A DNA stretch of 64,000 nucleotides from Apostichopus japonicus. Its lineage: Eukaryota; Echinodermata; Holothuroidea; Aspidochirotida; Stichopodidae. The notes beneath the pieces are model-generated. The model saw only the letters and a program-made list of their open reading frames with translations, was not told the DNA's origin and did not search any database. This document shows, piece after piece, positions 1 through 61,500 of this stretch. Location: positions 22,286,168-22,350,167 of the forward strand of contig NC_092569.1 in the NCBI RefSeq assembly GCF_037975245.1, in the 5' to 3' direction. Within the stretch, counting starts at the first letter, position 1. Each line of letters begins with the position of its first letter. A program made the translations under genes and the position numbers.

Positions 1-1099
1 GTACTTACGGAGACTATATGTGCAATGCATTCACTGGTGTTGCCTTTGTCCAATCGATGCAACTAAATTGTGTACTTACGGAGACTATATGTGCAATGCA
101 TTCACTGGTGTTGCCTTTGTCCAATCGATGCAAACTAAATTGTGTACTTACGGAGACTATATGTGCAATGCATTCACTGGTGTTGCCTTTGTCCAATTGA
201 TGCAACTAAATTGTGTACTTACGGGGACTATATGTGCAATGCATTCACTGGTGTTGCCTTTGTCCAATTGATGCAACTAAATTGTGTACTTACGGAGACT
301 ATATGTGCAATGCATTCACTGGTGTTGCCTTTGTCCAATCGATGCAACTAAATTGTGTACTTACGGAGACTATATGTGCAATGCATTCACTGGTGTTGCC
401 TTTGTCCAATCGATGCAACTAAATTGTGTACTTACGGAGACTATATGTGCAATGCATTCACTGGTGTTGCCTTTGTCCAATCGATGCAACTAAATTGTGT
501 ACTTACGGAGACTATATGTGCAATGCATTCACTGGTGTTGCCTTTGCCCAATCGATGCAACTAAATTGTGTACTTACGGAGACTATATGTGCAATGCATT
601 CACTGGTGTTGCCTTTGTCCAATCGATGCAACTAAATTGTGTACTTACGGAGACTATATGTGCAATGCATTCACTGGTGTTGCCTTTGCCCAATCGATGC
701 AACTAAATTGTGTACTTACGGAGACTATATGTGCAATGCATTCACTGGTGTTGCCTTTGTCCAATCGATGCAACTAAATTGTGTACTTACGGAGACTATA
801 TGTGCAATGCATTCACTGGTGTTGCCTTTGTCCAATCGATGCAAACTAAATTGTGTACTTACGGAGACTATATGTGCAATGCATTCACTGGTGTTGCCTT
901 TGTCCAATCGATGCAAACTAAATTGTGTACTTACGGAGACTATATGTGCAATGCATTCACTGGTGTTGCCTTTGTCCAATCGATGCAACTAAATTGTGTA
1001 CTTACGGAGACTATATGTGCAATGCATTCACTGGTGTTGCCTTTGTCCAATCGATGCAACTAAATTGTGTACTTACGGAGACTATATGTGCAATGCATT
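1..1099 (-). repeat. 71-bp tandem array of the VPS28 exon 5/intron junction
   Basis: Units start near 1, 72, 144, 215, 286, 357, 428, 499, 570, 641, 712, 783, 855, 927, 998 and 1069. The period is 71 bp, or 72 where the flank has one extra A. On the minus strand each unit holds 42 nt equal to the end of VPS28 coding exon 5 (encoding [14 protein letters not shown]), then GTAAGTAC and about 21 nt more of the following intron. Copies are nearly identical, differing by single substitutions. The array runs off the left edge. The last unit is cut at 1099 by an LTR and resumes at 4447. Plus-strand open frames here only reflect the repeat period. Confidence 0.95.
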
Positions 1100-1804
1100 T
1101 GTAAGTTTAGGGGTTTTCTGTACTGGCGTGCCCTCCCAAAAGTATGATGACTCAGGGGAGAGAAGTTGTAAAGATAACGCAGGAACAAAAGATTAACGGT
1201 AACTTGAAGGATGTAATAACAATTAACTGGAACAACGGTATACTTGAATAGTTTAACAACAATTAATTAGAACAACGATATACTTGAATAGTTTAACAAC
1301 CATTAACTAGGACAACGGCTTACTGGAATCATTTAATAACTTAAACAACTAACTATAAAATATAATTTACTTACAAGCTCACTTCCCACATACAGTATAA
1401 CTCAAACGTACTCACAAGTGTTGGCCGGTCAACCATGCATCCTTATTCTCTGCCTCATTCATTCGCTCTCCCAAACATTTTCAAATACAAGAAAGTTCTC
1501 TCACACCACACGCACACACTCACACAAGTTACACGCACGCAACACAATCAGCGCGCCGCGCCCGATACATTTAAAAACCTCCGTACGTAATTAAGCAGCG
1601 ATGCATCGATACAAGCGCACCATAGCCTAACGCTACACTATATACATGTACGCCCACACAAGAATACGCCTATCGTATTAATCGCTCATTTACACTCTTT
1701 CCACCTGAAACGCAGACTTCTTCTGAAGTCTAAAAAATAGTCAATCTTTATTAATCGCTCATTTACACTCTTTCCACCTGAAACACAGACTAAACATAGT
1801 CACA
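1100..1804 (-). repeat. LTR copy 1 (3' LTR relative to integrase)
   Basis: Begins tgtaagtttagg and matches the copies at 3070 and 3849 to about 1730. It extends past them through an internal duplication of about 40 bp (atcgctcatttacactcttt occurs twice). The outer end could be the CA at 1803-1804 or about 1740. Confidence 0.75.
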
Positions 1805-2152
1805 TTCCTCACTACCTAGAAGGTGGTAGGTACTTATGCCTAGACTTAGACAGCCAGTTTGACTCAAAGTCCTTCTCTCTCAAACGGAGCTCGAGTCCGT
1901 AACAATTGTAGTAATCGAGATCAGCCACTTCTTATCAAACTCCACCTAAAAGGACTACTTAAAATAAAAAAATTCAAAATTTCATAAATAACCACAACAC
2001 CGCATGCGTCGTGTATGGGCGCACACATATGAACAGCTCTTCAGGTCTATGGCAAATCTGCATCGATGCATCAGAAAATAATCCTATATATATAATTTGT
2101 AATTTGTCTTGAAAATTGTCACACATTCTGAATAAACTAATCAATGAGCTAA

Positions 2153-3037
2153 TTAAACCCACCCCAGGTCAAAGACAGTGGTGTCCGTACCGATTGCATT
2201 AGTTCCAAAACGAGGCGGTGGAACTCCTTTATTACCCCTTTCGGATCTTCTTATTTGAGTAGAATTTGTTATATTCTCAACCGCATTTTCTTGTGGCTTT
2301 TTCTCTTCGATCTTCTTGATTGGCCTCCTCCAAGTATATAGTGGATGCATGACTTCTTCTTTTTCTTTTTCTTTCAGGTCGGGGACGTTTAATTTTCTAT
2401 CATCATCCGGTTTCATGTCTTCCTGGAAGGTGCACAATTTCAGCTCGTTTCTGTGGATTACTCGTTCCTTTCCTTTTCCATTCTCAGGAAGTATCGCATA
2501 TACTGGTATGTCCGGGTTAGGTTGCTTTGCTACGATGTAGACATCCTCCTCCCACTTATCTTGGATTTTGCATCTCCCCCTGACTTTCCTGTTTCTAACC
2601 AAGACTCGTTCTCCCGGGATAAGCAGATGCGTTCTCAGTCTTTGGTTGACTGCTTTCTTCTGTCTCTGTGCCGCTCTGTCCAGATTATCCCTGACATGGT
2701 TGAAGGCACTTACGTATTTCCTGTGATGTTCTTGGACCCAACTGTCATATGCTCCAGCAGTTGGTATTGGCTGTTTTTCATCACTTCCTTTTATCATAAA
2801 ATCCACAGGTAGACGAGCATGCCTACCAAACATCAGAAAGAATGGAGTATAACCAGTTGAAGCATGGACAGTGTTATTGTAGGCATGGATGACTTCTGGA
2901 AGATGCTCCGGCCATTTCTGTTTTTGTTCTGGTGGCAGGGTTCCTAGTAAGTTGAGAAGCGTTCTGTTCATCCTTTCGCACTGGCCATTACCGGCAGGGT
3001 GATAGGGTGTAGTGTGACATTTCTTGATACCATACAT
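2153..3037 (-). pseudogene. Ty3/gypsy integrase, C-terminal fragment
   Basis: An open frame of about 294 codons. It has the integrase motif TPYHPAGNGQCERMNRTL, where the E of ERMN is the expected third catalytic acidic residue, then the TGYTPFFLMFGRHARLPVD block. A GPF/Y-like C-terminal module follows (VLVRN, then DKWEEDVYIV, then KQPNPDIPVY). The frame is open upstream of the listed ATG to the junction with the middle LTR at 3069/3070, so the first two catalytic aspartates and the zinc-binding region are absent. The frame has no internal stops, consistent with recent loss. It lies in the VPS28 intron. Confidence 0.88.
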
Positions 3038-3069
3038 AGAACAAAGTTCTTGTATAGGACAGTTGTTAA

Positions 3070-3703
3070 TGTAAGTTTAGGGGTTTTCTGTACTGGCGTG
3101 CCCTCCCAAAAGTATGATGACTCAGGGGAGAGAAGTTGTAAAGATAACGCAGGAACAAAAGATTAACGGTAACTTGAAGGATGTAATAACAATTAACTGG
3201 AACAACGGTATACTTGAATAGTTTAACAACAATTAATTAGAACAACGATATACTTGAATAGTTTAACAACCATTAACTAGGACAACGGCTTACTGGAATC
3301 ATTTAATAACTTAACCAACTAACTATAAAATATAATTTACTTACAAGCTCACTTCCCACATACAGTATAACTCAAACGTACTCACAAGTGTTGGCCGGTC
3401 AACCATGCATCCTTATTCTCTGCCTCATTCATTCGCTCTCCCAAACATTTTCAAACACAAGAAAGTTCTCTCACACCACACGCACACACTCACACAAGTT
3501 ACACGCACGCAACACAATCAGCGCGCCGCGCCCGATACATTTAAAAACCTCCGTACGCAATTAAGCAGCGATGCATCGATACAAGCGCACCATAGCCTAA
3601 CGCTACACTATATACATGTACGCCCACACAAGAATACGCCTATCGTATTAATCGCTCATTTACACTCTTTCCACCTGAAACGCAGACTTCTCCTGAAGTC
3701 TAA
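3070..3703 (-). repeat. LTR copy 2, fused directly to integrase coding sequence
   Basis: Nearly identical to copy 1. Its inner terminus (minus-strand ...CTTACA) abuts the middle of the integrase frame at 3069. On the other side it abuts the leader region. This suggests self-integration or recombination between copies. Confidence 0.8.
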
Positions 3704-3832
3704 AATAATTTAATACGATATTGAAATAAAATCTTGAATAAAATTCGCTAACAACTTTACTTGTTTACTTTTCTTTTAACTAAAATTACGTACGTGCCTC
3801 TGCGAAATCTTTAAAACTAAGCCAGTACTCCA

Positions 3833-3847
3833 ACACTTCTGACACCA
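3833..3847 (-). other. Retroelement primer-binding site (tRNA-Leu type)
   Basis: On the minus strand the sequence one base after the LTR terminus reads TGGTGTCAGAAGTG. This is complementary to a tRNA-Leu 3' end, including its CCA. It fixes the element's strand and the LTR boundary. Confidence 0.7.
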
Positions 3848-3848
3848 A

Positions 3849-4446
3849 TGTAAGTTTAGGGGTTTTCTGTACTGGCGTGCCCTCCCAAAAGTATGATGAC
3901 TCAGGGGAGAGAAGTTGTAAAGATAACGCAGGAACAAAAGATTAACGGTAACTTGAAGGATGTAATAACAATTAACTGGAACAACGGTATACTTGAATAG
4001 TTTAACAACAATTAATTAGAACAACGATATACTTGAATAGTTTAACAACCATTAACTAGGACAACGGCTTACTGGAATCATTTAATAACTTAACCAACTA
4101 ACTATAAAATATAATTTACTTACAAGCTCACTTCCCACATACAGTATAACTCAAACGTACTCACAAGTGTTGGCCGGTCAACCATGCATCCTTATTCTCT
4201 GCCTCATTCATTCGCTCTCCCAAACATTTTCAAATACAAGAAAGTTCTCTCACACCACACGCACACACTCACACAAGTTACACGCACGCAACACAATCAG
4301 CGCGCCGCGCCCGATACATTTAAAAACCTCCGTACGTAATTAAGCAGCGATGCATCGATACAAGCGCACCATAGCCTAACGCTACACTATATACATGTAC
4401 GCCCACACAAGAATACGCCTATCGTATTAATCGCTCATTTACACTT
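3849..4446 (-). repeat. LTR copy 3 (5' LTR, outer end truncated)
   Basis: Nearly identical to copies 1 and 2, and ends abruptly at 4446 against the VPS28 junction repeat. Next to its inner end is a leucine-tRNA-like primer-binding site. Confidence 0.8.
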
Positions 4447-4567
4447 TCACTGGTGTTGCCTTTGTTCAATCGACGCAAACTAAATTGTGTACTTACGGAG
4501 ACTATATGTGCAATGCATTCACTGGTGTTGCCTTTGCCCAATCGATGCAACTAAATTGTGTACTTAC
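4447..4567 (-). repeat. Proximal part of the VPS28 junction array
   Basis: This continues the 71-bp array on the other side of the LTR insertion: the rest of the interrupted unit (4447-4488), then one complete decoy unit (4489-4559), then the intronic tail of the authentic exon 5. The decoy donor (plus-strand acttacggag) has C at -1 on the minus strand. The authentic donor at 4566-4568 (acttaccgag) has G at -1. The real exon is therefore the unit nearest the 5' end of the array, which fixes the direction of the duplication. Confidence 0.92.
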
Positions 4568-7500
4568 CGAGACTATATGTGCAATGCATTCACTGGTGTT
4601 GCCTTTGTCATCCTTGATCGTAATAGGTCTGTCTTCTTTGATACGCTCAATGGCGGCAGAACAACTCATCTGAGAACATTAAATACAACCAAAGAGAAAA
4701 AGAAGATATTTAATTCTGTTGATATTTTCCTCTAAAAGTTGCAAGTCACATCTTGTGTACTGTTATATACAGGGTCACAACCATTATTTTGTACTGGGTG
4801 TGGGGTGGGAGGGGGGAGCTTAGATGTTTTGTCATCCAGGGGATGGGATGCAGACTAAGATTGGCTAATGGCCATTAAGTATGTTGTCTCACATGTTTCT
4901 TTCGAACTCTGACTTTGTTGAGTATTATTTATCTACATCTTTGTCAAGAAAGACGACTGGTGGCAAGGACCTTTGCGGCATACACAATTTAACAGCAATT
5001 GTTGTATTCGAGAACCATGGAGCCTCTTTTTACACGAACCTCTTTTGCTTTCAGACTATTTGGAGAGATGTGATGCATCTATCCCAGCAAATTAGATAAA
5101 AATGTGTCATTGTTTTCTGAGCTACTGTGGATTCCAAGGTGTCCCGAAAGATCTGTGTAAAATTCAAAACCTACCCAGTACCCAACAGCAAATATTAGCA
5201 GAACATCGATTAAAGTTGATGGGTCATGTTTACCTCAGCCAATCCTTATTGCAGAAAGACATAAATTCTGGACCGCCACAAACGGTGAGAACAAATATAG
5301 ATATACTAAACACTGTTATACTGAAAAATATTAGTGCTTATTGCACACTTGGGTCATTCTTAATTCACCATGTTATAGCTGAAATAAACACCAAAATGGC
5401 AACAAAACACACCAAAAACGAGAAAAAAACAATGCGTGTACTATCGATGGCTGACCTAACTTTTGACAAGGCTGGGAGCAAATGTCTGGTAGAGGAAATG
5501 ACATCTATTGCTACCATTGAACTAAGTTATTAGTACTAGGACATTGTACAGACTATACATAACATGAACTTTCCCTCAGGACCCATGAATGGCAGAGGCT
5601 CTAACAAATGTTTTAACATCTTCCCAAGCCTACCTACATCCTGTCAACCCTACCCCACATACTGACGACCCACTATTAAAAATCAAAGACAGGGTATTCC
5701 CATGGCTGGTAATGACCTGTTTAATTCTCCTACCCTACCCCACATCCTGACCCACTATTAAAAATCAAAGACAGGGTATTCCCATGGCTGGATAATGACC
5801 TGTTAAATTCTCCTACCAACCCTACCCCCCATCTTGACCCATTATTAAAAATCAAAGACAGGGCATTCCCGTGGCTGGATAATGACCTGTTGAATTCTCC
5901 TGCCAACCCTATCCTGCATCTTGAAGACCCACTCTTATAGCAGCTTTTTGCATTTTGTCATCCTTTTCCCACCCATTTGACATGTCCATCGAGTTTTTTC
6001 ATGTATTCATCACAAAACAGCAAACTAAGATATTGGCCAAGTATTTTCCTTGTCTGGAGCGTTAATTGGCGAGTAATTAAGGACTTCTGCAGGTAATGAG
6101 TAAAGTGTCATCCCACACATGGTTCTCCTTTAGCAAGATGGAACTTCCTTACCTTGTATTTTTTCACAAAGTCTTCCACTGTATGTATTTGTTCACTCTG
6201 TACTAGTTTGAAGGCTGCTTTGTATTGGACTAGCAACTTGGAGCAAGCTGCAGTATATCTGGAAAAACAAAATAGAAGAAACGATGGAACACATGCAAAT
6301 GTAGATAATGCCCAAATCCCCCCTCTTCTTCTCCTCCCCCCTCTCTTTCTCCTCCCCCCTCTGGTTCTCCTCCCCCTTTCATTCTCCTCCCCCTTCTGGT
6401 TCTCCCCCTTTGGTTCTCCTCCCCCCTCTGGTTCTCCTCCCACCTCTGGTTCTCCTCCCCCCCTCTGGTTCTCCTCCCCTCTTGTTCTCCTCTCCCCTCT
6501 CTTTCTCCTCCCCCCTCTCATTTTCCTCCCCCCTCTGGTTCTCCCCCTCTGGTTCTCCTCCCCCCTCTGGTTCTCCTCCCACTCTCGTTCTCCTCCCCCC
6601 TCTCATTCTCCTCCCCCCTCTTGTTCTCCTCCCCCCTCTCCTTCTCCTGGCCCTCTGCGGATGTACACTGTACTTCCACAAATTTCATAAATTACTGATA
6701 TATGCATACAGTATATAAATCTTTGCTCTTGAAATCCCTTTCAGATACAATGAAGCAATTCCCTGATCTGAGATTATTTACATTATTTACTGTGATGGTT
6801 CAGTTTACAAACTACTGTTCTACTTAAGTTAATACTAGTATACACATAATACACTCAGGAAGGACCATGCAAAAGGCATACATGTACACATAACACAGTT
6901 TAATACCATGCACATTAATTACGACCTCCTTTCATGTGTTTGAAAGTCACATCGCATCAAGCTGATTGTCAGACAAACTGCAACATTTCTCTGACGGCAT
7001 TGATTCTTCATTCTCTGAATTATTAAGTAGTTTATTTTAGTAGAAAAAAGGGATCAGGAGGGACACTCAAGTCCCCATCAGGACCTTATAGGAGAGAAAA
7101 AAAACTGAAGCTCTAGTGTCGTGATTTTCAAGAGATGTGACCGCCTATAATAAGGAACACTCTTTAAGGAACTAATCATCCTAGTAGCCCTCCACTGGAC
7201 CTTTTCAATTACTTCCTTATCCTTAGCAAAATATGGGTTACAAGCCTGCACAGCATACTCCAGCTGAGGCCTAACCAACTGATTATAAAGCCTAAGTAAG
7301 TTGTCCTCTTTCAGAAAACTGACGTTCCGCTTGATCATACCTAAAATCCTATTAACCCTTTAAGCAGCTCAAGACAAAGTTTAGAAGGTTGCAGAGATGA
7401 GTCAATGTAGATACCAATGTGGAAGAATGAGAATAAGATGAGAGAAAGGACTTGCAAATTTTGTTTGAAGGGAAAATACAGCAAATGCCGCGCTTGTTGT

Positions 7501-9671
7501 TAGAATACATACTCTTTGGGTGTTAAAGCATCTCTTATGTAAGCTTTTTCCAACCACTGCAGCGTGTTCAAGACTGCAAATAATTCAGCCATATTGTCAT
7601 ACTTCTCACGTTCTCTCACATTCCGGAAGAGTTTGACTTCCTGTAAAACAAATATAAATCAACAAAAATCTGATTAATGAAACATGAAGTATATAGGCCT
7701 ACAACCTGTCTGCTTCAAATCAAGTTTTTTATATGATTACTGATTGTCGAATATTAAACTGCATGCCAAGAGTCAGTCTTTAATGTATGCAAGACCTTCT
7801 CCATACACTGAGCACTGAAGTATTTTATGTAACCTACCCAGCAACACAACTAAAGTTTACAAGGTCTATACAGTAGCACATGGTTTGAAGTTTACTTATG
7901 GGAGAAAAGCATACTAATTTGAAACTACAGGCTCTGACCCCCCCCCCCCCCCGGCATATATTGATGTGAACATATAATACAGTATAACACCATTAAAAGC
8001 ATTCATTTGGCACGGATTTTCCTCAAAGTTTGTTTGGAAAAACAATGTTTCCTTAAAAAATTTACAATATGCTCTAAACTATTTTCAAATATAGAAACTA
8101 TAGACTGTAGTGCAATAAGGTAATGAATTCCCCTTCATGAAGTAGCAGCCCCCACCCTCCAACCCCATCAGTTGTGCCCTAAACACAAAGGAGATCAGTA
8201 TTATGTTTTTGCCCAATAGGCAATAATTTCCTATTTTCCATAAACCGCAAGGGTCCCAAAGGTTGTACACGACTACACGTATGTCAAGATGTTTTCATAG
8301 TCTTCTGAGGTAACAAGAAAGCATTAATAGGTAATTTGGAGAAGTCTGATGAATTGTGGAATATCATATTAAAGCACCAAATACTCCTTCATTTCCACTA
8401 GATGCCTATATATAAAAAAATAGGAAGGAAAGAGAAGAGTTAATGTGAGGAAGAATAACGTAATTTTCACTAACCTCAAACAGTTCTGGTCGGTTTGCAG
8501 GATCTGAAATTTAAAATGTGGAAAAAGAATTTATTCTTGGTCATTCACTACCAAAACTGTTGTCTAAACTTCTACCTTTGCACCATCCTCTAGAGATAGT
8601 TGTATGGTGGTGAATGGTAACTTTTGAGTGTACCCTCAATTCATATATTATTATGTTATAATACATATGTAGTTGTACTGATAGCCACTGTAGTTACTAT
8701 GATTGTAAGTCAATTTGTGACCACTTCATCGATCACACTTTTAATCTATACAGCCATAACAGAAATAGCCAAATTGGCACAATGAAACATCATACTTTTA
8801 TTTTGAGACACTTTCTTGAATTATTCCACTCATTTTATGGAATTATTCAGTAAACCTCAATGCACATGAAAAGTTGTGGAATTTGTTTTTCCATTAATTA
8901 GGAAGGTGAATAATAAGTTACATTGGCCAGATATACACTTCTTCATAGCTCCCAACTCTTGAGAAGGTAAATGCTGGTCCATGCCACGAATTGCTGTCCT
9001 TTTGAATTTTTATGGAATCCTGGTGATGCCTACATGTAAAATGGTGGCACTTAGAAAGGCTTTTGTCACCCAAAATTTTGTGAGAAATATGCATTTTTTT
9101 GTGTGTAACAGCAATAAATTGATTAGTAGATGATGAATCATTCTTTCCTGTGGCATGAAAATGTTCGCTGCTAGCCCCAATGAAAAGAAATATAGGCTAA
9201 TTTGAGGTTCAAATGATACTGTATAGGAGGTTTTATACTCTATTATGCTAAATGCTAAAGAAATGATGGTTGCCAAGTCAAAATTTGATGCATTTTTTTT
9301 TAAGTATACTTGCAAAATTACAATGCGGGTTTTTCGGACGCTTTCGCGGGTCAGCGTGTTAGACTGCGGGTCCAACCCGCGAATTGCGGGTCAGTTGGGA
9401 GCTCTGCTACTTTCTCTTCTATCAGTTGCACAGAAATAAAACGATAAGCTTACAAGTTAAAGTACCCACTATTTATACCGGTTCCACGACTAGGCTATAA
9501 TATGGCTACATCCGACAATTTCGTAGCAGTTACAGTAACACAGCATCATCACATTCGCATCCTCATGTAGAATTTCACATGAAATGCTTATTTGGAAATG
9601 TAAGAAAACATTATTAGCTATTGAAGTTACTTACTTGTAGGTGTTTGATTCTGGGCGACTCCGGAGAACAT
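4568..9671 (-). CDS. vps28: VPS28, ESCRT-I subunit (partial; 3' exons off the left edge)
   Basis: Five coding exons read on the minus strand: 9671-9635, 8503-8475 (29 nt), 7640-7513, 6258-6153 and 4669-4568. All have AG/GT borders and the phases join (402 nt, 134 codons). The product starts MFSGVAQNQ. It contains [42 protein letters not shown] and [18 protein letters not shown], which match the N-terminal half of metazoan VPS28 nearly word for word. VPS28 is a core ESCRT-I subunit (with TSG101 and VPS37) in endosomal sorting of ubiquitinated cargo. Family length is about 220 residues, so roughly 85 C-terminal residues (the domain that binds ESCRT-II) must lie beyond position 1. The ATG at 4669 is internal, not a start. 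The intron after exon 5 carries tandem copies of that exon's 3' end and an LTR element. The gene is divergent from the fibrinogen-domain gene at 11401. Confidence 0.93.
4740..6152. other. VPS28 intron 4, no recognised gene
   Basis: Lies between coding exons at 6153 and 4669. A plus-strand open frame of 143 codons (5102-5533) begins [12 protein letters not shown]. It resembles no family I recognise, has no clear splice partners and is antisense to VPS28, so I leave it uncalled. An 80-bp tandem repeat lies at 5648-5935. Confidence 0.6.
5648..5935. repeat. About 80-bp tandem repeat, 3 to 4 copies, VPS28 intron
   Basis: Repeated block with cctaccccacat, then attaaaaatcaaagacaggg, then ggataatgacctgtt. 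Successive copies diverge by a few substitutions and small indels. Confidence 0.85.
6314..6652. repeat. Polypyrimidine/polypurine minisatellite (ctcctccccc-type)
   Basis: About 340 bp almost purely C and T on the plus strand, built from 12 to 18-bp variants of ctcctcccccctctggtt. In VPS28 pre-mRNA it is a G/A-rich intronic stretch about 55 nt upstream of the exon at 6258. The Arg/Gly/Glu-rich open frames across it are by-products of the composition. Confidence 0.9.
7078..7370 (-). mobile_element. CR1-like LINE fragment (reverse transcriptase C-terminal part)
   Basis: A minus-strand frame reads [20 protein letters not shown], then [20 protein letters not shown], then [10 protein letters not shown]. 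This is the typical region after the RT core of CR1/Jockey-type LINEs. It is truncated at both ends and sits in the VPS28 intron, on the gene's strand. Confidence 0.85.
8944..9398. mobile_element. Possible hAT-type MITE in VPS28 intron 1
   Basis: Inverted termini: CATAGCTCCCAACT at the left and the complement of CAGAGCTCCCAACT at the right, bounding about 455 bp with GC-rich inner palindromes (tgcgggtccaacccgcga). The flanks do not show a clean target duplication, so the boundaries are tentative. Confidence 0.35.
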
Positions 9672-11400: not shown

Positions 11401-25344
<13,944 letters not shown>

Positions 25345-45691: not shown

Positions 45692-45744
45692 TCGTCAGGC
45701 TCAAAGTCAAATTCCACCGCATCAAGTGTATCAAGGATCTTATG

Positions 45745-48700
45745 ATTCAGTCAGTGGACATCCATCTGTCAGGGGTGTAGTCAGTATTAACCCCAGGGTC
45801 TTAGCATTGAGTCAGTGGACATCTATCTACCAGGGATGCAATCAGAATTAACCCCAGGGTCTTAGCATTGAGTCAGTTGACATCTGTCTACCAGGGATGC
45901 AATCAGAATTAACCCCAGGGTCTTAGCATTGAGTCAGTTGACATCTATCTACCAGGGATGCAATCAGAATTAACCCCAGGGTCTTAGCATTGAGTCATTT
46001 GACATCTGTCAACCAGGGATGCAATCAGAATTAACCCCAGGGTCTTAGCATTGAGTCAGTTGACATCTATCTACCAGGGATGCAATCAGAATTAACCCCA
46101 GGGTCTTAGCATTGAGTCAGTTGACATCCATCTACCAGGGATGCAATCAGAATTAACCCCAGGGTCTTAGCATTGAGTCAGTTGACATCTATCTACCAGG
46201 GATGCAATCAGAATTAACCCCAGGGTCTTAGCATTGAGTCAGTTGACATCCATCTACCAGGGATGCAATCAGAATTAACCCCAGGGTCTTAGCATTGAGT
46301 CATTTGACATCTATCTACCAGGGATGCAATCAGAATTAACCCCAGGGTCTTAGCATTGAGTCAGTTGACATCCATCTGTCAGGTGTGTAGTCAGAATTTA
46401 CCCCAGGGTCTTAGCATTGAGTCAGTTGACATCTATCTACCAGGGATGCAATCAGAATTAACCCCAGGGTCTTAGCATTGAGTCAGTGGACATCCACTGG
46501 TCAGGGGTGTAGTCAGTATTAACCCCAGGGTCTTAGCATTGAGTCAGTTGACATCCATCTTTCAGGTGTGTAGTCAGAATTTACCCCAGGGTCTTAGCAT
46601 TCAGTCAGTGGACATCCATCTTTCAGGTGTGTAGTCAGTATTAACCCCAGGGTCTTAGCATTGAGTTAGTGGACATCTACCTGTCAGGTGTGTAGTCAGA
46701 ATTTACCCCAGGGTCTTAGCATTCAGTCAGTTGACATCCATCTTTCAGGTGTGTAGTCAGAATTTACCGCAAGGTCTTAGCATTGAGTCAGTGGACATGC
46801 ACTTGTCAGGGGTTTAGTCAGAATTTACCGCAAGGTCTTAGCATTGAGTCAGTTGACATCCGTCTGTCAGGGGTGTAGTCAGAATTAACCCCAGGGTCTT
46901 AGCATTGAGTCAGTTGACATCTATCTACCAGGGATGCAATCAGAATTAACCCCAGGGTCTTAGCATTGAGTCAGTTGACATCTATCTACCAGGGATGCAA
47001 TCAGAATTAACCCCAGGGTCTTAGCATTGAGTCAGTTGACATCTATCTACCAGGGATGCAATCAGAATTAACCCCAGGGTCTTAGCATTGAGTCAGTTGA
47101 CATCCATCTTTCAGGTGTGTAGTCAGAATTAACCCCAGGGTCTTAGCATTGAGTCAGTTGACATCCATCTGTCAGGGGTGTAGTCAGTATTAACCCCAGG
47201 GTCTTAGCATTGAGTCAGTTGACATCTATCTACCAGGGATGCAATCAGAATTAACCCCAGGGTCTTAGCATTGAGTCAGTTGACATCTATCTACCAGGGA
47301 TGCAATCAGAATTAACCCCAGGGTCTTAGCATTGAGTCAGTTGACATCCATCTTTCAGGTGTGTAGTCAGAATTAACCCCAGGGTCTTAGCATTGAGTCA
47401 GTTGACATCCATCTGTCAGGGGTGTAGTCAGTATTAACCCCAGGGTCTTAGCATTGAGTCAGTTGACATCTATCTACCAGGGATGCAATCAGAATTAACC
47501 CCAGGGTCTTAGCATTGAGTCAGTTGACATCTATCTACCAGGGATGCAATCAGAATTAACCCCAGGGTCTTAGCATTGAGTCAGTTGACATCTGTCTACC
47601 AGGGATGCAATCAGAATTAACCCCAGGGTCTTAGCATTGAGTCAGTTGACATCTGTCTACCAGGGATGCAATCAGAATTAACCCCAGGGTCTTAGCATTG
47701 AGTCAGTTGACATCTGTCTACCAGGGATGCAATCAGAATTAACCCCAGGGTCTTAGCATTGAGTCATTTGACATCTGTCAACCAGGGATGCAATCAGAAT
47801 TAACCCCAGGGTCTTAGCATTGAGTCAGTTGACATCCATCTACCAGGGATGCAATCAGAATTAACCCCAGGGTCTTAGCATTGAGTCAGTTGACATCTAT
47901 CTACCAGGGATGCAATCAGAATTAACCCCAGGGTCTTAGCATTGAGTCATTTGACATCTATCTACCAGGGATGCAATCAGAATTAACCCCAGGGTCTTAG
48001 CATTGAGTCAGTTGACATCTATCTACCAGGGATGCAATCAGAATTAACCCCAGGGTCTTAGCATTGAGTCAGTGGACATCTATCTACCAGGGATGCAATC
48101 AGAATTAACCCCAGGGTCTTAGCATTGAGTCAGTGGACATCTATCTACCAGGGATGCAATCAGAATTTACCCCAGGGTCTTAGCATTGAGTCAGTTGACA
48201 TCTATCTACCAGGGATGCAATCAGAATTAACCCCAGGGTCTTAGCATTGAGTCAGTTGACATCCATCTGTCAGGTGTGTAGTCAGAATTAACCCCAGGGT
48301 CTTAGCATTGAGTCATTTGACATCTATCTACCAGGGATGCAATCAGAATTAACCCCAGGGTCTTAGCATTGAGTCAGTTGACATCTATCTACCAGGGATG
48401 CAATCAGAATTAACCCCAGGGTCTTAGAATTGAGTCAGTGGACATCTATCTACCAGGGATGCAATCAGAATTAACCCCAGGGTCTTAGCATTGAGTCAGT
48501 TGACATCTATCTACCAGGGATGCAATCAGAATTAACCCCAGGGTCTTAGCATTGAGTCAGTTGACATCCATCTACCAGGGATGCAATCAGAATTAACCCC
48601 AGGGTCTTAGCATTGAGTCAGTTGACATCTATCTACCAGGGATGCAATCAGAATTAACCCCAGGGTCTTAGCATTGAGTCAGTTGACATCTATCTACCAG

Positions 48701-48789
48701 GGATGCAATCAGAATTAACCCCAGGGTCTTAGCATTGAGTCAGTTGACATCTATCTACCAGGGATGCAATCAGAATTAACCCCAGGGTA
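45745..48789. repeat. 60-bp minisatellite, about 50 copies, downstream of RAE1
   Basis: Unit ggtcttagcattgagtcagt, tgacatctatctaccaggga, tgcaatcagaattaacccca. Two variants alternate: one with accagggatgcaatcag, the other with gtcaggggtgtagtcag. Between 46915 and 47455 the order A-A-(A)-B1-B2 repeats, giving a higher-order unit of four to five monomers. No coding frame persists through it. Confidence 0.96.
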
Positions 48790-49659: not shown

Positions 49660-50919
49660 GTATGGCAAGCCATTTTATTTTTTATTCAGTATTTATTGAT
49701 ATCAACAATTATTTCATGATATCAACAATTATTTCATGATATCACGAATTATTTCATGATATCAACAATTATTTCATGATATCAACAATTATTTCATGAT
49801 ATCACGAATTATTTCATGATATCTGAAATTGTTTTAATGATATGTACGTCATATTTGATGATATCATTAATTGGTGCAAGGAAATTATTGATATCATTAT
49901 TTTATTTGATGATATCATAATTAAACTTTCTGATATCAAGAATTGAATTTGTGATATCTTAAAATAGATGAACTATTATAGATATCAATAATTCAGTTCA
50001 AGATATCATAAATTCAATTTCAGATATCTGTATTTAAATTAATGATATCAAAAAGTATGACGTACATATCACGAATTCGGCCATATTTAATGATATCATA
50101 AATTCGAATTTTTGATATCATAAATTCCAATTAATGATATCATCAAATATGACGTACATATCACGAATTCGGCCATATTTAATGATATCATCAATTGCGC
50201 CCTCAGTTTGAGCGCCTGGGATTATGTGGCGGGAAGTACAGTGCAGTGCAGTGCGGTTAGTGCATTATATTCTGTTTAGAACTGATTGAGCTTCAATCCC
50301 CGAGCAGTTTTACGTATTGAGCCTACCGTATAACTAATGTAATGTATACTGCACTGCAGTAGACCCATACCAACTACCACCAGCTTAGTTCCATAAGGCC
50401 TATGTACGGATGAGTTACTGAGACTACGCCATATAACCAGACATATCGCAGCCATATTTAATGATATCATTTAATATGGCCGAATTCTTGATATGTACGT
50501 CATAATTGTTGATATCATTAAATCGAATTAGTGAAATGTACATATCATTAATTCGAATTAGTGATATCAGTAAATATGACGTCATATTTGATGATATCAC
50601 TAATTCGAATTAATGATATGTACATATCACTAATTCGAATTAATGATATGTACATATCACCAATTCGAATTAGTGATATGTACATATCACAAATACATTT
50701 AAAGATATCTTTAAATCATTTCTTGATATCACTAATTCATTTAATGATATCATTAAATAAATTATTGATATCAAGAAATGAACTGAATTAATGATATCAT
50801 TAATTGATTTAATGATATCGACAATTCGAATTCTTGATATCAACAATTGATTTAATGATATCATCAAATAATTAAAGATATCATTAAATATTGAATAAAA
50901 AGTAAAACGGCTTGCCATA
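49660..50919. mobile_element. GATATC-rich palindromic foldback element
   Basis: Termini tatggcaagccattttattt at the left and the near-complement at the right (gtaaaacggcttgccata). A likely 6-bp target duplication CACCCG flanks it. The arms are dozens of gatatc motifs spaced about 20 to 25 bp (atttcatgatatcaacaatt, then aattcgaattagtgatatca variants). A unique core of about 270 bp (50190-50460) starts gcgccctcagtttgagcgcc. No transposase frame. Confidence 0.85.
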
Positions 50920-53239: not shown

Positions 53240-54352
53240 TCGACAGCATGATCCAGCTATGCCCTTTAAACAGCTGAACGCAGCAAACAAGGACGTCACG
53301 TGACTTCCTTCTTATAGACGCTCGTGAATACCGCTTTATATTGGCAATGCACAACTAAAATAAATATCCCTGCGTCTTATAGCATAATGATGTTGATAAG
53401 AAATATTACCCGATGTTACACAAATGCCACGCATAAGCTGCAAAATGGCAAACGGTGCGTTTACGGACGAATGTGGATTATGATATAGGCCTAGTTAACT
53501 TTTGAACGCATTCAATTTAATCTGTTATGAATATTGTGATTGCATCACGGTTTATCTAACATGTAATTTGTGATTGATTATAAAAATGTACGGAAATATC
53601 CTGCACTGTTTCTGCTACAATTTGCGAAGCGACGATGCGTAATAAAAGTATTCTCTCGCTCCTTCCCATCGTTGAATATTCATATAAAATTTCGACAATT
53701 AAGAAATTTGTATTGTCTGACATGCATTATATTAAAATATAAAAGGTAAGCCTATACCTGAACAAAATATAGCAGTTATCGAACAGACTATATTGTCATG
53801 GGAACGAGTGTCTGCCGTGTTGCAAGTAATTCAAGTTTGTGATTCATAAGTACGTGCCTTGTGAAGATAGAACGTTCAGGTACTAATTAGATTGGATGAT
53901 TACGAATCGTATGCATCTTATAAGATAGAGAAAGGCCTTTTACGCGTATCTTATCACAAATCTAATTTGATAACAGCCTGATATGATCATCATTTGCAAT
54001 AAGTATATAACATTGCTTAAAATCACTCTACTAATTTTTTTTTTTGAATTGGAAATACGACACTGAAATGTTATCTTGGTACCAGCAAATTAACGGACAC
54101 TCTTGGCAAAGCCTGTCTACAAATCGGCCTTTCACTACTCTTTTTTTGTTTGTCTCTTAATTATTTCAATCTCATTTGCTGCTACTAACTTTGCGCCAAT
54201 CTATGGATCGCTTTCACATGGATAACACAAATGTTAAATTGTAACATTCCTCTCAACCCAGACAACGCAGAGTAGTTGCGATTTTCCAACAAAGACTGGG
54301 TGTGGCCATTTTTTCTTCACTTTCCGCTGGATTTTAAACATTCAATCCTGAC
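53240..54352. other. Upstream region of GPCR A, no recognised gene
   Basis: AT-rich sequence without a supported frame. It should contain the promoter and 5' UTR of the receptor starting at 54353, but I see no decisive motif. Confidence 0.4.
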
Positions 54353-55333
54353 ATGGATGAACTTCATCAGAGCTTTATCAACGACGAGTACAACACGGTC
54401 GGGACATCAACCCCAAATCCTCCTCCTATAAACGGATCGCAATTTGCTTTTTATTTGAGCCAGTTACTTCTTCTTTTGATAAGTCTTGTGGCACATTTTC
54501 TGGCAATTATTACAATGCGAAGAGTAAAACGAGAGCGAGAAATGCTCGATGCTGCCGATGAATACATGGATGTACATACATTATTATTCAAAGCGCTTCT
54601 CAGAGTTGATTTGAGCGCCACCTTGTTTTTCTTATGCCGCGCTTTACTTGCTCCTACACCTCTCTTCTCTGATAACAGTTTCAGGTGTACGGTCGACAGC
54701 AGTAGTGGGATATTTTTCTCTCAGATGTCAGGTTTAATCAACATTCTTCTCTTTCTGGAGAGGGTCTTGTCATTAAGGACGCCATATCTTTATAGAAGAC
54801 ACGCAACGGCATTCAAAGCCAAAATAGCTGTGACTTGCATGGTTTTCTTTGGATTGTTCGTCTGTCTTCTACCCGTGTTTGGGTTCGGATCTTATCACGT
54901 TGAAATAGATGGCGGTATCCTGTGTCTCTCCCCTGGTGATGTGCACCTCTCGCAGTCCAAACATCACATTCACTTTACCATTGTATTCTTGACGGTGGGA
55001 TTTTGTATCATTCTAAGCATTGTACTGGGAAACATTGTAGTCATTTATTACGTCATCCGTCTCCGACAAGTAGCACCATTAGATTATGCAAATCAGGTCT
55101 CGATACAACCAATTGACACCGCAAATGATCACCCAGGTGTCGATGCAAACAACGACTTGAGGGATGTACCTGTCCCTAGCTTGCAGCTAAATGATGACAA
55201 GATGTCGAACGGGGGAAACCAACGTCAAAATCCGACATTGAAGCTAGCAGTTAAGTTCAGCAGAGAAGTCGGCACTGCGTTAGCTCTCATATGTGTTTCA
55301 ATCGCGTATATGATTTCTTGGATCCCGCTTTAT
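54353..55333 (+). CDS. Class A GPCR A, first coding exon (TM1-TM6), prostanoid-receptor-like
   Basis: 327 codons from an ATG, ending at a consensus donor (CTT TAT|gtaagt) in phase 0. Hydrophobic segments TM1-TM6 are clear. Motifs: LLRVDLSA in TM2 (Asp2.50), ERV in place of DRY, the TM3 cysteine (SFRC) and the loop cysteine (GGILCLSPGD) for the conserved disulphide, and SWIPLY in TM6. TM1 has AHFLAI where most receptors have GN. Blocks such as PYLYRRHATAFKAK and LLPVFGFGSY resemble prostanoid receptors; this family call is tentative. No TM7 exon is visible before the next receptor exon at 58563. TM7 may come from the exon at 61433, which has matching phase. Confidence 0.85.
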
Positions 55334-55359
55334 GTAAGTTTGTTTATTAACTAAGAATG

Positions 55360-57784: not shown

Positions 57785-58562
57785 TTATATATTAATTTGA
57801 TTACAATCCATTTCAGTCCGGAACCGAAGAACATGGAAGTAAGTAAATATGTCGTTCGAATGAACAAAAGACATATACATTGTTATTACATTTCACTGAC
57901 TTGTTGTTGGCGTTTCTTTTTGCTCCCGTGACATATTTTCAATCATTTCCCTTTGTTTAGGGCATATTGAGTTCTACTTTTTTCTCATTTCGTAACTTTT
58001 GCTAGGTTCAGCTATATTTCCAACTATAAAAATTTGCTAGCTTTCAGAAAGAAAGTCTTCGTCGATCTCTGCATACGTAAATAACAGAAAAGAAGGCGGC
58101 GCTTTGGTTATATTTTCATTGCATACACAACTTCTTGATAATAGAAGTGTTCAGAGGTTCCTGAATTTTATTTTTCAACCAGTCCGTTATTTATCGGTAG
58201 GCCTATTATTATGTTGGTGTACTGGAAACGCTTTAACAGGAACCGTACGTGGTGAATTCATAATTCTGAGAGAGAGATCCTACACATCCGCATCGGTGAA
58301 TGAAGTATTGTGACGTTCAGCATTCTCATGACAATATCAACACTCCTTTCTAACATTTTGTTGTTGACTTTCTGTTAATTTCTTTTGGGTATCGAAAGGC
58401 TCGGAGACGCTTTAACAGGGACTGTGCTTGCTGTACTAAAGTCTCATATTTCTGAAGTAGCCTACATGCCTCGTTTATTCATACATATATACTCCAGAAG
58501 CATCCAAAGGTATATGTAAAGAGTTTCTTTGTATCTCAACAAACGCGAAGGAAACCACGATC
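55360..58562. other. Between the two GPCR first exons, no TM7 exon found
   Basis: Scanned for an N/D-P-x-x-Y/F type TM7 segment after an acceptor; none seen. A 22-nt segment bounded by cag and gtaagt (about 57820-57841) could be a small non-coding exon. A (TA)n tract is at 57715-57778. Confidence 0.5.
57715..57778. repeat. (TA)n microsatellite
   Basis: About 64 bp of TA between the two GPCR exons. Confidence 0.97.
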
Positions 58563-61500
58563 ATGTCTTTTTTCGATGTCTTGGTTCTAATTGTAGTATA
58601 CTTATGGTTGTATGGTACTATTATCCTTGGTTTGGTGATTCATATACTTGCACTGATTGCGTCCCATTACAGTAAAAAATATTCTACCGTTGATGGCCAG
58701 TCTCCTCGTCAAACACTCCCAATATTTCTTTTCAAGTCCCTGTTAACGATTGATTTCTCTGCTCTTATTGTCTCCTTAATGCAAGGTATACTTCGTCCAA
58801 TTTTTAGGAGGTGGGAATTCTTTTGCGACGTTTCAATAGCTGCCAGCATTTATTTTTTGTGGATTTCTGGTTTCTTGAATATTTTAATGTTTCTAGATAG
58901 ATGTTTAGTTCTAATGGCTCCGTATACATACACCAACGTCGCAACCCTGGCGAAAGCTAAAATGGTAGTAACTACCTTAGTGATAGGGACATTCGGCCTG
59001 TGCTGCCTTCCGATGGTGGGCTTTGGATCTTACAAGATAAAACTGAATGGAACATATAAGTGTGTTGCCCCTGGTGATTTGCACCTGGTCGACTCGAAAA
59101 CTCAAGTCTATTTTACATGGATATTTCTGTTATTAGGGTTAGTGATAATGTGCAGTATTCTGTTAGGAAATTCAATTCTGATCTACAAAGTCCTACAATG
59201 GAGTAAATCTAAACCTGTCCTTGGTGAAGTCAATAGTTTTACCCGGTCCACGACGGATGGTCCATCAGCAGCAAGTACTAGCATCGTAAATGCCCCCGAA
59301 AGAGGGACCAAACTTCCAGAAAGTTTTCCGAAAAGTGGGGAAGACCTTGCAGTTCGTGATGACTCGAAACGAAATCCAAGGATTGTCATTGGGAGTGCTA
59401 AGAAGACTAATGAGGACCGGAGGCATATTTTCGTTCTCATTGTTGTATCTGTTGCCTACATGGTTTCATTGATTCCGTTCTATGTAAGTTATACTCATCA
59501 GCTGTTTGTCATGTAGTGGACATTTATTGTAGCAGTGAGATTTGACATCTATCATGTGTGGTATAATATCAAGAGAATGTTTTGTGACTGTCGAAATTCA
59601 TATAAATATGCTTCACATCATACACGATCGGTGAAAGCTTTAATTTATTTTAATTTCAGTTTACTTAACTCTACATTATCCTTTCTTGTGGAAGGACAAA
59701 GTGTCCTCTATGAGTCAAAAAAAAAACAAAAAAACTCAAGTATAAGCACTAGCCACGACACTTCTTATAAAAGTAAACATTCCGAAGGGTACAAGAAATT
59801 TAAAAACAATTTTGTGAATATATAAAATAACAGAAATGTCTTTGTGTTTTAAGAGTTGGCTCCATTTCAAGATATTTGAATGTCTGGTATAATAATTTTT
59901 AAAATAAATTCTATAGTTCTGTACCAAAGAGCTCACATCGGAATCGCTTCTTCGCCAGTCTTTCCGCTGTGACTTAACTTAAAAGCCTCTCAAATTAAAT
60001 ACATCTCCGGACAAACATGGGCAGCTTAGAGTTCACACAGTGTATCTTCGGAGCTTCAATAATTGATCATGAATTCATGTAGGGTCAAAAAGAGTTTTCC
60101 TATACGTATACACGCACATTTATATTTTTCTTATAAAATGCACAAATACAAACAAACACACCCATATACCATGAAAATACATCGAGATGATGGATGGAGT
60201 TTCATTTTAAGCCGATTAACCACTTTAACCATGAATTGACAACGCTTCAAACTACAATTATTTAAATTAGTCTGGATTTCCTTTCTATATTTGATCGCAT
60301 GAATGAACCGTCAAATTGATCAAATTACTCATGTCTGTTTAAGTGATAATTCCTGATGTTGAAATAGTCTTCCGCCCATTTACCTTTTGCAGGATTTTAG
60401 ATCGCGGCACTGTGGTGACCGTATTTATTAAGTAATAGGCAATAAATCAAAAGAGAGAGAGATACAGAAAGGTTAAGAGAGAGATATAGAGGAGGAGGGA
60501 GGGGGGGGGGGGGGGGAGATCGTGACTTGCTCTTGATGGATGGCTTACTCCCTTGAAGAATGCTTTAAAAGGTATTTTTGAGGATGAGGTCACCCGAAAG
60601 TATGAAAGCATTGTACAAGGTACTGCCTATCACATGAATTAGTAGAATTATGTCACAGATTTTAAGAAGTTTAAGAAGTAAAAAGATATTCACAAATTAA
60701 TCCATCCGTTGATAGATCTATGCTATATTATCTCTGTTTTGTCAGTTGTTCGGAATGTTAATTCAGCATATGATGTAATGTATATCGGATTACGTAAAAC
60801 GGATAACGCTTTATTTAATCTGTATTTTTGCGATATGCATGAAGAATAAGGGAAATGTCACGGAAAGTGAGGTGGGGTGTATTACAACGTCAATGCAAAA
60901 TACAGCTTATGTTAATTGTTTAGTAAGTTCATATTTTATCTAAACTGCCTATTCAGTTTATCATTTCCTCCTATTGAATATACTCCACATAAAGTTAGGA
61001 AATAAAGATTCTTTCATTTGCCTATAATGTTCGTTTTTATGATTCGTTTGTATTGATTGTGTAAACGTTTGTTCAAAATAATGGTTAAAACGATGTATTT
61101 GCGATCTATGGATCGCAAGTTGAGTTTCTTTGGCAAACACTCATTTTTCTTTTGGCTCACATCCCCTAGTGTATAAATGAGGACAAGTTGTGGACGCCCG
61201 ACCAGATTATGGGTTGCATCCTATATAGGGTATGTCCTCCAAGGTATACATACGTGTGGCTCACTGCAGTGCCGGGGGAATGGTTCTTTGAATTGTGCGC
61301 ACTTCGGTGTATGGGTGTAACAAGTTGTACCAATGAGCAGGGTAAATTCATACGAGAGGACTTATATGCCTTGATCCAAAACTGCTAACCTGCATTTTCA
61401 ACTATTTCTATTGTTTGTTTTCATCTTCGTAGACGGAGCGACTCCTGGCCACCTTTCAAGTTCAAGTCCCATCTGGCATATTTTATCTCACCATCTGGTT

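What the first reader, a model, noticed from the sequence alone, without database searches (positions are those of the whole stretch)
1..4609. Tandem array of a VPS28 exon-intron junction: at least 17 decoy 5' splice sites
The 71-bp unit at the left edge equals, on the minus strand, the last 42 nt of VPS28 coding exon 5 plus 29 nt of the next intron, including GTAAGTAC. The authentic exon (4568-4669) is the 5'-most unit, and the copies lie directly downstream in the intron. A minisatellite made from a splice donor and its exon flank could affect donor choice, U1 binding or intron retention of an essential ESCRT gene. Use of the next donor would run into an in-frame stop inside the second unit. 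I know of no described example of this form.
Basis: partly seen in the sequence, partly recalled or inferred. Interest (0 to 1): 0.88.

Follow-up and report, generated by a model that had tools for sequence, protein, structure and literature searches.

The report
Splice-site minisatellite in sea-cucumber VPS28
In a sea cucumber, the edge of one exon of the essential gene VPS28 has been copied in tandem into the next intron with its splice site, a kind of repeat already described in lancelets as a "mirage" and most likely a harmless by-product of a repeat-rich genome.

Summary
On the minus strand, the VPS28 exon 5/intron 5 junction is repeated as a 71/72-bp unit: 1 authentic and 17 copied GTAAGTAC donors in the window, 2 more copies beyond its left edge. 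All 19 copies differ from the exon at donor position -1 (G to C). A 3.3-kb LTR-element block splits the array. First-decoy use would meet an in-frame TAG.

The host is a sea cucumber by protein match. "No described example" is wrong: lancelet genes carry such repeats, called mirages (PMC3087553, PMC3902484), and the human ABCA7 intron-18 VNTR repeats a donor (PMC5954066).

It is not unique here: 4 of 60 sampled exon loci show like architecture, three at donors, one at an acceptor. That is not clearly above what array density predicts, and tandem GTAAGT is not enriched genome-wide. Most decoys scored there are not weaker than the presumed authentic donor.

Best reading: a mirage minisatellite born by local duplication, mostly silent because the exon-proximal site is used. 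No transcript data from this species were available.

The parts
9635..9671 (-). VPS28 exon 1 (from ATG)
   Evidence: protein match to full-length VPS28
8475..8503 (-). VPS28 exon 2
7513..7640 (-). VPS28 exon 3
6153..6258 (-). VPS28 exon 4
4568..4669 (-). VPS28 exon 5, source of the repeated exon end
   Evidence: phase 0 at its 3' end
4560..4567 (-). authentic donor of exon 5, TCG|GTAAGTAC
   Evidence: U1 duplex -10.7 kcal/mol
4446..4607 (-). exon-proximal part of the array: authentic unit, one full copy (donor at 4496) and the start of a unit cut by the element
1100..4445 (-). LTR-retroelement block inside a repeat unit: LTR copies 1100-1738, 3070-3709 and 3849-4445 (the last truncated at the array side)
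   Evidence: self-alignment 99.2-99.8% identity
2153..3076 (-). integrase-like open frame of the element
   Evidence: Pfam rve_3 E 4.7e-05, 23.5 bits, below its 26.5 cut-off
1..1099 (-). main part of the array in the window, 71/72-bp units; copied donors start at 1076, 1005, 934, 862, 790, 719, 648, 577, 506, 435, 364, 293, 222, 151, 79 and 8; continues 2 units beyond the left edge

Best explanation
This is a mirage-type minisatellite. Shown by sequence: the VPS28 exon 5/intron 5 junction (2-nt GA shared at the breakpoints) is repeated head to tail inside the intron, with the authentic copy at the exon side, and an LTR element lies inside one unit, so it came after the array. Inferred: a local duplication was expanded by unequal exchange or slippage; one early G-to-C change at -1 spread to every copy by amplification; splicing keeps using the exon-proximal donor, because exon definition pairs it with the nearby acceptor and, here, because it is the stronger U1 site; any leak to a decoy gives a premature stop and is discarded by nonsense-mediated decay. 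The array has no needed role and reflects a minisatellite-rich genome in which some arrays begin at splice junctions.
For: Copy anatomy and order. Stop after the first decoy. Decoy U1 duplex -7.1 against -10.7 kcal/mol for the authentic donor. Like architecture at 4 of 60 other exon loci in the genome: L041, L046 and L074 at donors, L047 at an acceptor (loci; analysis). Number compatible with random array placement: expected 1.67, Poisson P(>=4) 0.089 if every locus has two junctions. Described kind in lancelets, where authors report no interference with splicing. Full-length VPS28 with a clean exon 5-6 join in a related sea cucumber, from contigs of at most 1,976 bp, shorter than the gene here.
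Against: No RNA from this species was examined. Decoys are not hidden by structure: mean unpaired probability 0.44-0.74 for decoys against 0.33 for the authentic site. At -7.1 kcal/mol the decoys are stronger than the donor of exon 3 (-4.6) and within 0.5 of those of exons 1 and 2 (-7.2, -7.6), so leakage is plausible. In human ABCA7 the next copied donor is used (PMC5954066). With only half of the assumed junctions the 4 cases exceed chance (expected 0.84, P 0.011). Edge divergence, a described trait of mirages, is seen only at the exon-proximal copy (3 differences); the far-end copy has 1, and three inner copies have 2. P0001 is a different species (5 differences in exon 6 by eye).
Confidence: 0.78

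Rival explanations
1. Functional poison splicing: decoy donors divert part of VPS28 pre-mRNA to a stop-containing product, and copy number sets VPS28 dosage, in the manner of the splicing changes reported for the ABCA7 VNTR.
For: Every decoy route contains the stop. Decoys are U1-competent, -7.1 kcal/mol, and accessible. The ABCA7 precedent includes retention of a single unit.
Against: All 19 decoys carry the weaker -1 C. Lancelet mirages did not disturb splicing according to the authors. No transcript evidence here.
Confidence: 0.1
2. U1 decoy or helper array: many U1 sites in the intron recruit U1, strengthen the authentic donor or suppress early polyadenylation, for instance from the inserted element.
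For: 20 U1-competent sites in a 5.5-kb intron. Two AATAAA and five ATTAAA on the sense strand within 1337-4086, inside the element block.
Against: The array predates the insertion, so it did not arise as a shield. Tandem GTAAGT is not enriched genome-wide over the reversed control, 9184 against 11426 matches (a weak test). One of the four other arrays is at an acceptor.
Confidence: 0.06
3. Assembly artefact: the repeat number, or the join of element and array, is a mis-assembly.
For: One LTR is truncated at 4445 and the block has three LTRs, so the join is unusual. A search with an antisense frame of the array found no protein elsewhere (0 of 650 candidates), which is weak evidence because such frames are rarely predicted as proteins.
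Against: Units differ by a set of scattered variants, there are no N bases in the window or left flank, the assembly has 35 contigs for 671.6 Mb, and like architecture recurs at other loci.
Confidence: 0.06

Closest known systems
Lancelet (amphioxus) mirages: Adh3, globins BflGb6 and BflGb9, troponin C, PGBD5
   Same: [quoted passage not shown] PMC3902484 one passage). The Adh3 paper itself is not held.
   Different: Host is a sea cucumber; 19 copies against 6 and 3 units in the two BflGb6 haplotypes; all copies share a weakened -1 base; split by an LTR element; edge divergence seen at one end only; length and somatic instability untested here.
Human ABCA7 intron-18 VNTR
   Same: Unit begins with the exon's own donor, so the donor is repeated; use of the next donor shifts the frame to a premature stop (PMC5954066 passages).
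   Different: 25-bp unit, located in the intron with its first two bases being the donor; here about 40 nt of the exon is repeated too. Splicing effect measured there, not here.
Human internal tandem repeats at exon-intron boundaries, and intron gain by tandem duplication
   Same: Tandem copies carrying splice signals inside genes (PMC2812944 passages; PMC4974935 listing and start of abstract only).
   Different: Those concern new introns or changed exons; here the old intron is kept and only enlarged.

Membership tests
mirage minisatellite | tandem repeat whose unit spans an exon-intron boundary | tested here: met
mirage minisatellite | authentic boundary at one end, copies in the intron | tested here: met
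mirage minisatellite | homogenised inner units, diverged edge units | tested here: inconclusive
   7 of 18 tabulated copies equal the consensus and the exon-proximal copy has the most differences (3), but the far-end copy has only 1 and three inner copies have 2
mirage minisatellite | does not disturb normal splicing | tested here: inconclusive
   only a related species' protein, P0001
mirage minisatellite | length or somatic instability | not testable with these tools
   one assembly only
mirage minisatellite | known host range: lancelets | tested here: not met
   sea cucumber by VPS28 identity. This is where mirages were described, not a defining property
ABCA7-type splice-altering VNTR | measured use of copied donors | not testable with these tools
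   no RNA data
intron gain by tandem duplication | a new intron arises | tested here: not met
   intron 5 runs from the authentic donor to exon 6 with the copies inside it; no new exon seen

The most novel reading that the evidence does not exclude
Mirages are a recurrent feature of at least one sea-cucumber genome, at both donors and acceptors and with tens of copies, so that many genes splice correctly past long runs of equal or stronger copies of their own splice site. This would make them natural experiments showing that position relative to the exon, not site strength, decides splice-site choice, and a standing supply for intron growth.
Probability: 0.35. Interest if true: 0.65.

Novelty: new member of a known kind. 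Interest (0 to 1): 0.42.

Why it matters
It extends a little-known kind of repeat from lancelets to an echinoderm and shows it is not a single oddity in that genome (4 of 60 sampled exon loci). Such arrays offer a clean test of how the spliceosome chooses among many near-identical sites differing mainly in position.

Tried and rejected
Masking of decoys by RNA structure: rejected, decoys are no less accessible than the authentic donor. Attenuation at -1 as a general rule: rejected for this genome. Of the sites that keep the searched motif: at L046 9 decoys have -9.7 to -10.2 kcal/mol against -9.7; at L041 35 decoys have -7.0 to -8.0 against -5.6; at L074 the main form (12 sites, the authentic one included) has -7.3, but the decoy next to the exon (AAT|GTAAGTTT) is weaker at -5.4. 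Copies that lost the motif were not scored (TRF counts 14.6, 40.9 and 15.9 copies), and the authentic site was taken to be the exon-proximal one. Genome-wide donor enrichment in tandem arrays: not found; GTAAGT triples 5229 + 3955, reversed control 5776 + 5650. These counts are dominated by long arrays, so the test is weak. In the 60 sampled loci GTAAGT triples were found in 3 loci on the coding strand, rank 1 of 90 letter permutations (mean 0.33), none on the other strand; one of the 3 (L028) is an array about 1 kb beyond the matched exon, not examined for a further exon. Array edges are not plainly piled up at exon ends: 5 in the first 100 nt 3' of the match against 0-5 in the later 100-nt bins, plus one starting inside it. 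Independent proof of the array from other assemblies by protein search: none. L028, L045, L051, L057, L075 and L087 also had arrays within 150 nt of the match and were not counted: L028, L045 and L057 because no copied junction was seen in the stretch read, L051, L075 and L087 without base-by-base reading. L044's short array was read and not counted. Literature on splice-junction arrays in echinoderms: none seen in the listings (2 of 2 listed; 15 of 153; 12 of 32; 10 of 259); nor a further precedent with copied splice junctions, beyond those named, (20 of 45; 15 of 15; 20 of 31; 15 of 45; 6 of 6; 15 of 36). Listings show titles and abstract starts only.
Full report
What was checked. The first 4.6 kb of the window hold a 71/72-bp tandem repeat. 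On the minus strand it is the 3' end of VPS28 exon 5 plus the start of intron 5. Exons 1-5 were placed by matching human VPS28 and reading splice sites, and the 134-residue product matches Pfam VPS28 at 3.6e-30. A search of 5.8 billion proteins returned 1086 proteins among 1097 candidates (120 listed). The best are an unnamed 98% match (P0001) and Holothuria leucospilota VPS28 at 93%, so the host is taken to be a sea cucumber. The species was not determined.

Size and order. The window's own genome is held (671.6 Mb, 35 contigs). With 10 kb of left flank, exon 6 starts at C9:22285196 and intron 5 is 5,538 nt. It holds 20 GTAAGTAC sites: the authentic TCG|GTAAGTAC and 19 copies, 18 TCC and one CCC at -3 to -1. 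Seventeen copies are in the window. The unit search found this locus only (21 matches; counts there are lower bounds). The element block 1100-4445 lies inside a unit, so the array came first. Its LTR copies are 99.2-99.8% identical, so the insertion or its rearrangement is probably recent. The exon part of the 18 tabulated copies differs from the exon only at -1, with one further change in one copy, so the array too is probably young.

Consequences for splicing. Exon 5 ends in phase 0. Use of the first decoy adds 71 nt and meets TAG, and every later decoy includes that stop. A simple U1 duplex energy gives -10.7 kcal/mol for the authentic donor and -7.1 for decoys; exons 1-4 give -7.2, -7.6, -4.6 and -10.0 (U1 end recalled). 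So decoys are weaker than their rival but stronger than one working donor of the same gene and close to two others. Folding 200 nt around each site does not hide decoys. P0001 reads IAHIVS|LFITAMD without insert and comes from contigs of at most 1,976 bp, which fits spliced RNA, but it differs from this genome in exon 6 at five places by eye and is another species.

Is it unique? I sampled exon loci by conserved domain: the best 30 of 150 listed WD40 places and the best 30 of 134 kinase places, 3.1-3.9 kb each, 202 kb in all. TRF and reading of the sequence show like architecture at 4 of 60: 3 of 30 WD40 and 1 of 30 kinase loci. L041: 35-bp unit, 40.9 copies, array edge about 22 nt inside the exon, 36 GTAAGT in the locus. 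L046: 53 bp, 14.6 copies, edge only about 4 nt inside the exon, GAG|GTGAG in 10 exact places, so it resembles the ABCA7 form. L074: 31 bp, 15.9 copies, edge about 12 nt inside the exon, with an imperfect exon part. L047: 73 bp, 21.1 copies at an acceptor, with a CTCTCTCTAG tract before the copied exon start in the copies displayed. Gene labels from memory, not from a call: L041 a Daw1-like, L046 a Prp19-like, L074 a myosin-light-chain-kinase-like and L047 a Wdr61/Ski8-like gene. Many kinase loci look like long single exons, so fewer than 120 junctions were really sampled.

Is that more than chance? With 69 merged arrays, random placement would put 1.67 exon-facing array edges into a 40-nt zone at two junctions per locus, Poisson P(>=4) 0.089; with half as many junctions, 0.84 and 0.011. 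Array edges are not plainly piled up just 3' of the matches. Genome-wide, triples of GTAAGT spaced 20-50 nt are not more common than the reversed word. So junction arrays may simply be minisatellites that happened to start at a junction and were tolerated because the authentic copy remains at the exon edge. In the other donor arrays, most scored decoys are as strong as or stronger than the presumed authentic donor; the decoy next to the exon at L074 is weaker. This argues that position (exon definition) rather than strength decides, and that the -1 C of VPS28 is more likely a founder change than a requirement. It stays an inference without RNA.

Known kind. [quoted passage not shown] PMC3902484 (one passage) adds PGBD5 and troponin C. 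PMC5954066 (passages) describes the ABCA7 VNTR whose unit starts with the exon-18 donor; its next donor is used and gives a premature stop. The finding is therefore a new member of a known kind in a new phylum. I saw no paper on mirages in echinoderms in the listings, which are partly capped and cover open-licence papers only.

Verdict. Observation confirmed and extended. Function most likely none, with possible low leak to decoys. The most interesting part is the recurrence in this genome, which rests on 60 loci and needs an annotated genome-wide count.

Noticed in passing
L041, L046, L047, L074 (G000 loci): Four further splice-junction arrays in other genes of the same genome, three at donors and one at an acceptor.
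   Followed up: partly
window 1100-4445: LTR-element block with three nearly identical LTRs, one truncated at the array side; one LTR copy lies directly against the integrase-like frame, so it is nested or rearranged.
   Followed up: partly
window 19853-20003 and 20478-20593: Two 26-bp minisatellites whose units are reverse complements (24 of 26 bases), perhaps inverted arms of a mobile element.
   Followed up: no
window 45734-48788: 61-bp repeat, about 50 copies, 94% matches; relation to any exon not tested.
   Followed up: no
window 49690-50896: Long stretch of interlaced repeats around GATATC words.
   Followed up: no
window 54338-55351 and 58461-59513: Two neighbouring open frames matching the rhodopsin-type receptor family 7tm_1.
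   Followed up: no
window 6317-6657: 18-bp pyrimidine-rich (+ strand) repeat ending about 60 nt upstream of the VPS28 exon 4 acceptor.
   Followed up: no
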